This document shows positions 1 to 266 of a DNA stretch of 64,000 nucleotides, piece by piece. Under the pieces are notes generated by a model. That model searched no databases. It saw only the letters and a list, made by a program, of their open reading frames with translations, and was not told the DNA's origin. The DNA comes from Candidatus Nitrotoga sp. MKT (GTDB taxonomy: Bacteria > Pseudomonadota > Gammaproteobacteria > Burkholderiales > Gallionellaceae): positions 1 through 64,000 of the forward strand of contig QFXH01000013.1 of the NCBI GenBank assembly GCA_003402345.1. The letters run 5' to 3'. Position 1 is the first letter of the stretch. Each line of letters opens with the position of its first letter. A program made the position numbers and the translations under genes.

Positions 1-266
1 ACGTCATTCTTTACATGAGCCTTAAGGAGGCAGTTGTGCGTATCATTTGGCGCGCAAAGGAATATAAATTCACTATCAACGTGGAACATGTCCCTGTAAA
101 CCTTCTCCCAGTCTCTATTCGGGTAGGACTTTAGAGGGTTGTCAACTACATACGGCTTCAGAAATGGTGAAGCTGCAAAGGCGTTATTGGCCATTACAGC
201 TAGTCCAGCGGTGGCGGACAGCTTTAGAAAGCTGCGCCTGCCAATGTTATTCTTAATTTCCATCAT
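1..266 (-). CDS. nxrA: N-terminus of Tat-exported molybdopterin oxidoreductase, nitrite oxidoreductase alpha subunit (NxrA)-like; truncated by window edge
   Basis: Manual reverse-complement translation: MMEIKNNIGRRSFLKLSATAGLAVMANNAFAASPFLKPYVVDNPLKSYPNRDWEKVYRDMFHVDSEFIFLCAPNDTHNCLLKAHVKND. Twin-arginine signal RRSFLK and the CxPNDTHxC motif; SD-like AGGGGTGA upstream. Only 88 codons visible. Confidence 0.7.
   Translation of the reverse strand, partial: MMEIKNNIGRRSFLKLSATAGLAVMANNAFAASPFLKPYVVDNPLKSYPNRDWEKVYRDMFHVDSEFIFLCAPNDTHNCLLKAHVKND

What the first reader, a model, noticed from the sequence alone, without database searches (positions are those of the whole stretch)
1..266. Hidden N-terminus of a Tat-exported NxrA-like molybdopterin enzyme at the window edge
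The ORF track misses this gene because it runs off the window. Translation shows a twin-arginine leader and CAPNDTHNC followed by LLKAHVKND. The ND-TH-C pattern is that of nitrite oxidoreductase and related type II DMSO-reductase-family enzymes (established family knowledge). Together with ACIII and a cbb3-type oxidase in a Gallionellaceae-like background, this suggests a nitrite-oxidising Nitrotoga-like organism. The substrate and taxon are inference.
Basis: partly seen in the sequence, partly recalled or inferred. Interest (0 to 1): 0.85.

Follow-up and report, generated by a model that had tools for sequence, protein, structure and literature searches.

The report
Nitrotoga nitrite oxidoreductase gene, cut off
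The 266 bases at the window's edge are the start of nxrA, the gene for the enzyme that turns nitrite into nitrate in the bacterium Candidatus Nitrotoga; the gene only looks cut because the assembly breaks at a duplicated operon, and this enzyme and its two-copy arrangement were already published.

Summary
Window 3-266 (minus strand) encodes the first 88 residues of NxrA: a Tat leader and CAPNDTHNC. Window base 1 is also base 1 of contig C13. The same genome holds the intact gene on an 8.7-kb contig (C23): nxrA (1169 aa), nxrB, nxrC, a TorD/NarJ-like chaperone and an Mrp/ApbC-like ATPase. C23 is a collapsed repeat. One end overlaps C13 and C17 and the other overlaps C2 and C15, all at 100% identity, so this genome has two copies.

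Named close hits are all Ca. Nitrotoga, apart from one lake MAG. The best solved structure is Kuenenia NXR-A (E 5.5e-230). A tree puts the protein beside, not inside, the Kuenenia-containing NXR clade, as published for Ca. N. fabula, which also has two identical nxr loci.

Additions by inference: copies A and B keep conserved neighbours yet are identical within genomes and about 5% different between two closed genomes (concerted evolution). A perfect FNR box lies 253 bases upstream of nxrA and is conserved in A/B-type copies; the genome's own fnr has a similar box. A third copy in two relatives lacks it. Two other Gallionellaceae genera carry this NxrA type.

The parts
1..266 (-). 5' end of nxrA (codons 1-88 at 266..3), running off the start of contig C13; the complete gene is at G000:C23:4803-8312 (-)
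183..245 (-). Tat signal region of NxrA (IGRRSFLKLSATAGLAVMANN, residues 8-28)
   Evidence: TIGR01409 above cut-off, residues 9-28
30..56 (-). Codons 71-79, C-APN-D-THN-C: three of the four presumed ligands of the [4Fe-4S] cluster FS0 of NxrA, with Asp where NarG and ClrA have Cys
   Evidence: motif table; alignments; ligand role is established family knowledge
1..689 (.). Part of the duplicated nxr unit: 689 bases identical to C23:8047-8735; divergence from the other copy's flank (C17) begins after window 689
506..519 (.). Perfect FNR-type box TTGATCTATATCAA, 253 bases upstream of the nxrA start codon; the only such palindrome in the window (0.13 expected)
479..484 (-). TAGATT, a -10-like hexamer 21 bases downstream of the FNR box, in a block conserved across the genus; promoter role inferred
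   Evidence: alignment, sequence
4530..5390 (-). RpoH (sigma-32), the conserved upstream neighbour that identifies the window's copy as nxr copy A

Best explanation
The sequence is the 5' end of one of two identical nxr operons of a Candidatus Nitrotoga. NxrA is the catalytic molybdopterin subunit of a periplasmic nitrite oxidoreductase. It is exported, presumably folded and together with NxrB, by the Tat pathway. It oxidises nitrite to nitrate at the Mo centre and passes electrons through the Asp-ligated [4Fe-4S] cluster of NxrA, the clusters of NxrB and the heme-binding NxrC to periplasmic cytochromes and the cbb3-type oxidase. The gene is cut because the assembler collapsed the two operons into one contig (C23). 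Shown here: sequence, full-length operon, two copies, family placement. Inferred from the literature: catalysis and direction. Inferred here: FNR control and gene conversion between copies.
For: Full-length frame of 1169 aa with nxrB, nxrC, a chaperone and an Mrp-like ATPase downstream. 95-100% identical to NxrA of named Nitrotoga strains. PDB 7b04 E 5.5e-230 over nearly full length, against 5.2e-47 for perchlorate reductase and about 1e-26 for NarG. Mo-site pattern Y-4x-D-11x-QM is the one published for Ca. N. fabula (PMC6050957). Two contigs overlap each end of C23 at 100% identity. The flanks pair off by synteny with closed genomes: C15-C23-C13 is copy A and C2-C23-C17 is copy B. No NarG above the family cut-off.
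Against: No read coverage was available to confirm two-fold depth of C23. Nitrite oxidation cannot be told from nitrate reduction by sequence alone; the paper notes that putative nitrate reductases sit in the same clade. The strain name is not given by the tools.
Confidence: 0.96

Rival explanations
1. The window holds a real truncated nxrA pseudogene left beside insertion sequences, and only C23 is functional.
For: The frame stops at base 1 and three IS-like regions lie at about 700-3530.
Against: The frame is cut by the contig end, not by a stop or insertion. The 689 shared bases are identical to the intact copy. Copy A is intact at the syntenic place in closed genomes G001 and G008.
Confidence: 0.02
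2. The genome has a single nxr operon, and the overlaps at the ends of C23 are ordinary contig overlaps with some unrelated repeat.
For: Only one full-length nxrA is assembled.
Against: Both ends of C23 overlap two different contigs at 100% identity. The four flanks match the two conserved nxr sites of closed genomes. Ca. N. fabula has two identical loci.
Confidence: 0.02
3. The enzyme works mainly as a periplasmic nitrate reductase.
For: Its clade contains putative nitrate reductases, among them the characterised Hydrogenobacter enzyme (PMC6050957).
Against: Near-identical enzymes occur in Nitrotoga cultures that grow on nitrite (PMC6050957). The window also encodes ACIII-like and cbb3-like respiratory genes.
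Confidence: 0.02

Closest known systems
Nitrite oxidoreductase NxrABC of Candidatus Nitrotoga fabula (Kitzinger et al. 2018, PMC6050957)
   Same: Tat leader on NxrA, Mo-site pattern Y-4x-D-11x-QM, nxrABC plus chaperone, two identical loci, tree position beside the Nitrospira/anammox NXR clade.
   Different: Only minor sequence difference (95% NxrA identity to the ZN8 record titled N. fabula). The linked Mrp/ApbC-like ATPase is reported here; the parts of the paper read do not mention it.
Kuenenia stuttgartiensis NXR-A (PDB 7b04)
   Same: Full-length match, CSPNDTHAC cluster motif with Asp, Tat-like leader.
   Different: A separate sister clade; Mo-site third position QT instead of QM.
E. coli NarG and Ideonella ClrA
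   Same: Type II DMSO-reductase family molybdoenzymes.
   Different: HGVNCTGSC and HSNGCVAGC in place of CAPNDTHNC; very long branches outside the NXR clades; E. coli NarG starts without the RRxFL Tat motif.

Membership tests
Nitrotoga-type periplasmic NXR | Twin-arginine leader on NxrA | tested here: met
   RRSFLKL; TIGR01409 17.8 bits against cut-off 16.7
Nitrotoga-type periplasmic NXR | [4Fe-4S] motif CxxxDxHxC plus a downstream Cys | tested here: met
   CAPNDTHNC ... PRICNKG
Nitrotoga-type periplasmic NXR | Mo-binding pattern Y-4x-D-11x-QM | tested here: met
   YSWHTDLAPGCPMVSGHQM; pattern from PMC6050957
Nitrotoga-type periplasmic NXR | nxrB with Fe-S cluster domains, heme-binding nxrC with exported leader, and a chaperone, adjacent | tested here: met
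   C23 gene order; Fer4_11, EB_dh and Nitrate_red_del all above Pfam cut-offs; the NxrC leader was judged by eye from the sequence
Nitrotoga-type periplasmic NXR | NxrA branches with Nitrotoga, as a sister clade to the Kuenenia-containing NXR clade | tested here: met
   quick ML tree, 67 rows, Nitrotoga fork 100
Nitrotoga-type periplasmic NXR | Two identical loci | tested here: met
   two contigs at each end of C23, synteny; coverage not available
Nitrotoga-type periplasmic NXR | Nitrite-oxidising activity | not testable with these tools
   known for cultured Nitrotoga (PMC6050957)
NarG (respiratory nitrate reductase) | Score above the TIGR01580 cut-off | tested here: not met
   127 bits against 1084

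The most novel reading that the evidence does not exclude
In Nitrotoga the two main nxr operons are controlled by an oxygen-sensing Fnr, so that nitrite-oxidation capacity responds to oxygen. Gene conversion keeps these two copies identical, while a third copy present in some strains escapes both: it has its own promoter without the FNR box and a shared change in the Mo site (M292Q). The same enzyme type was already present in an ancestor of several Gallionellaceae genera.
Probability: 0.4. Interest if true: 0.5.

Novelty: already known. Interest (0 to 1): 0.25.

Why it matters
The main finding repeats published work on a key enzyme of the nitrogen cycle. What may be useful is practical and secondary. 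Nitrotoga nxr tends to be cut or left out in assemblies because it is a long exact repeat. The conserved FNR box gives a direct, testable idea of how nitrite oxidation is switched in this genus. And Nitrotoga-type NxrA in two other Gallionellaceae genera conflicts with the published statement that nxrAB is exclusive to Nitrotoga in this family (PMC10734462).

Tried and rejected
One structure search failed on a frame error and was repeated. The four-strain Nitrotoga genome paper (doi 10.1038/s41396-018-0240-8, recalled from memory) is not held, so the strain guess was not confirmed. A third nxr copy in this genome was considered and rejected: only two nxrA places exist, the region fetched on C5 matches the closed genomes only on the cysteine-synthase side of the copy-C site, with no nxr sequence, and C23 is not broken at the copy-C boundary. 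Missing nxr in G017 and G018 was considered as true loss, but the linked Mrp gene is absent too and only its 40-42% paralogue remains, as expected if the repeat contig was not assembled or binned; left open. A FNR box upstream of nxrA in G089 and G111 was looked for and not found.

Full report
Observation. On the minus strand, window 266 down to 3 is an open frame of 88 codons starting with ATG and running off the window. It carries a twin-arginine leader (TIGR01409 above cut-off) and the motif CAPNDTHNC, and it matches Kuenenia nitrite oxidoreductase subunit A (PDB 7b04_B) at E 2.7e-19. Window base 1 is also base 1 of contig C13 of a 2,707,194-base genome in 23 contigs, so the gene is cut by the assembly.

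The complete gene. The same genome has a second, identical match on contig C23 (8,735 bases), where the frame is open for 1169 codons. C23 carries, on one strand, nxrA (8312-4803), nxrB (4722-3565, Fe-S cluster domains), nxrC (3557-2439, ethylbenzene-dehydrogenase-type heme subunit), a NarJ/TorD-like chaperone (2371-1631) and an Mrp/ApbC-like P-loop ATPase (1068-49). The protein matches 7b04 at E 5.5e-230 over nearly its full length, against 5.2e-47 for perchlorate reductase and about 1e-26 for NarG. It fails the NarG model by a wide margin (127 bits, cut-off 1084), and the genome has no NarG above that cut-off.

Why the gene is cut. C23:8047-8735 is identical to window 1-689. The same end of C23 also overlaps C17:1-121, and the other end overlaps both C2 (539 bases) and C15 (121 bases), all at 100% identity. 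C23 is therefore a collapsed two-copy repeat. Two closed relatives, G001 and G008, show both sites. Copy A lies beside rpoH and a PepSY-like membrane protein gene, as in C13 and C15; copy B lies beside ahcY and a Sel1-repeat gene, as in C17 and C2 (the gene names ahcY, Sel1 and PepSY are from sequence inspection, rpoH). The order is thus C15-C23-C13 for copy A, the window's copy, and C2-C23-C17 for copy B.

What organism. A scan of named genomes with the full protein returned Candidatus Nitrotoga strains HW29, SPKER, BS, M5, 1052, LAW, CP45 and ZN8 plus one lake MAG, at 95-100% identity. The window's genome is a Nitrotoga. The strain may be MKT, by elimination from the four-genome Nitrotoga set I recall from memory; this is a guess.

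Phylogeny. In a quick maximum-likelihood tree of 67 proteins, Nitrotoga NxrA forms one group (support 100). Its sister is a group holding NxrA-like proteins of two other Gallionellaceae genera (G089, G111) and metagenomic sequences. This whole clade is sister to the clade of Kuenenia 7b04, with NarG and ClrA on long outside branches. That agrees with the published tree (PMC6050957). The motif CxPNDTHxC, with Asp at the second ligand place, is found throughout the NXR rows that the pattern could read (five rows gave no automatic match) and not in NarG (HGVNCTGSC) or ClrA (HSNGCVAGC).

Comparison with the literature. Kitzinger et al. 2018 (PMC6050957) described this enzyme in Ca. [quoted passage not shown] PMC9239080 reports that short-read analysis suggests two nxrAB copies per Nitrotoga genome although one is assembled, the same effect as here. 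The finding is already known.

Addition 1, concerted evolution. In G001 and in G008, copies A and B have 100.00% identical nxrA coding sequences, whereas the two genomes differ by 5.2% there; all three nxrB copies are identical within each genome and 6.6% different between them. Both sites are conserved across genomes. Ongoing gene conversion is the simplest reading. A third copy (C) in G001 and G008 has nxrABC and the chaperone but not the Mrp-like gene, has another promoter, and shares the changes T288S and M292Q (the M of the Mo-site QM) in both genomes. A contig end of strain SPKER shows the same copy-C promoter. This genome has no copy C.

Addition 2, a probable FNR promoter. TTGATCTATATCAA lies at window 506-519, 253 bases before the nxrA start. 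It or a near-identical box occurs 244-257 bases before nxrA in every A/B-type upstream region long enough to show it, several of these being copies in one genome, and not in the three copy-C promoters. It is the only TTGATNNNNATCAA in the window (0.13 expected). In the whole genome the narrower form TTGATNTANATCAA occurs only before the two nxr copies and before one other gene. That gene encodes an Fnr (NCBIfam PRK11161 above cut-off; close to solved FNR structures) with the cysteine spacing C-x2-C-x5-C plus C105, as in oxygen-sensing FNR (established knowledge); its box lies about 100 bases upstream (L063:5625, gene start 5735). The broader form has 10 sites in the genome against 1 for the reversed control. 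A -10-like TAGATT lies 21 bases after the box (window 479-484), the spacing of a class II FNR promoter (inference). No held paper contains Nitrotoga, Fnr, nxr and regulation together. Function is not shown.

Addition 3, other Gallionellaceae. Of 159 family genomes, two outside the genus carry this NxrA type at 66-68% identity: G089 (three copies, 100% complete) and G111 (two matches, one cut by a contig end). G089 copy C9 has nxrA, nxrB, nxrC, chaperone, a ferredoxin-like gene and the Mrp-like gene, followed by a Sel1 gene 52% identical to the one beside Nitrotoga copy B, with an ABC transporter 76% identical to the one near copy B of G008 upstream. This suggests shared ancestry at the same place. 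It conflicts with the statement that nxrAB is exclusive to Nitrotoga in the family (PMC10734462). Their phenotype is unknown.

Verdict. Interest is modest; the additions are leads, not proofs.

Noticed in passing
window 690-3534: IS-like remnants (an IS200-type transposase frame at 953-1210, an IS630-like stretch at about 1297-2300 and an IS3-like stretch at about 2386-3534, all apparently broken; names judged by eye) lie between nxr copy A and rpoH; in closed relatives G001 and G008 rpoH is only about 0.8 kb from nxrA.
   Followed up: partly
L045:8905-12414 and L048:8108-11617: Third nxrA copy in two closed Nitrotoga genomes, with a different promoter, no linked Mrp gene, and shared substitutions T288S and M292Q, the latter in the Mo-site motif.
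   Followed up: partly
L055-L059 (genomes G089, G111): Nitrotoga-type NxrA at 66-68% identity in two other Gallionellaceae genera, three copies in one of them, although the literature calls nxrAB exclusive to Nitrotoga in this family.
   Followed up: partly
genomes G017, G018: Two nearly complete Nitrotoga genomes without any nxrA or the nxr-linked Mrp gene; either the repeat contig was not binned or the operon is truly missing.
   Followed up: partly
L066:3001-6497: A haloarchaeal plasmid (Natronococcus occultus plasmid 2) holds an unannotated NxrA-like stretch at 42% identity over the whole length, matched in two pieces, beside a P-loop NTPase, a 4Fe-4S protein and a TorD-like chaperone.
   Followed up: no
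window 57060-60149: The cbb3-like oxidase subunits are divergent: CcoN 227 bits against cut-off 583, CcoO-like subunit 68 against 201 with a long N-terminal extension.
   Followed up: no
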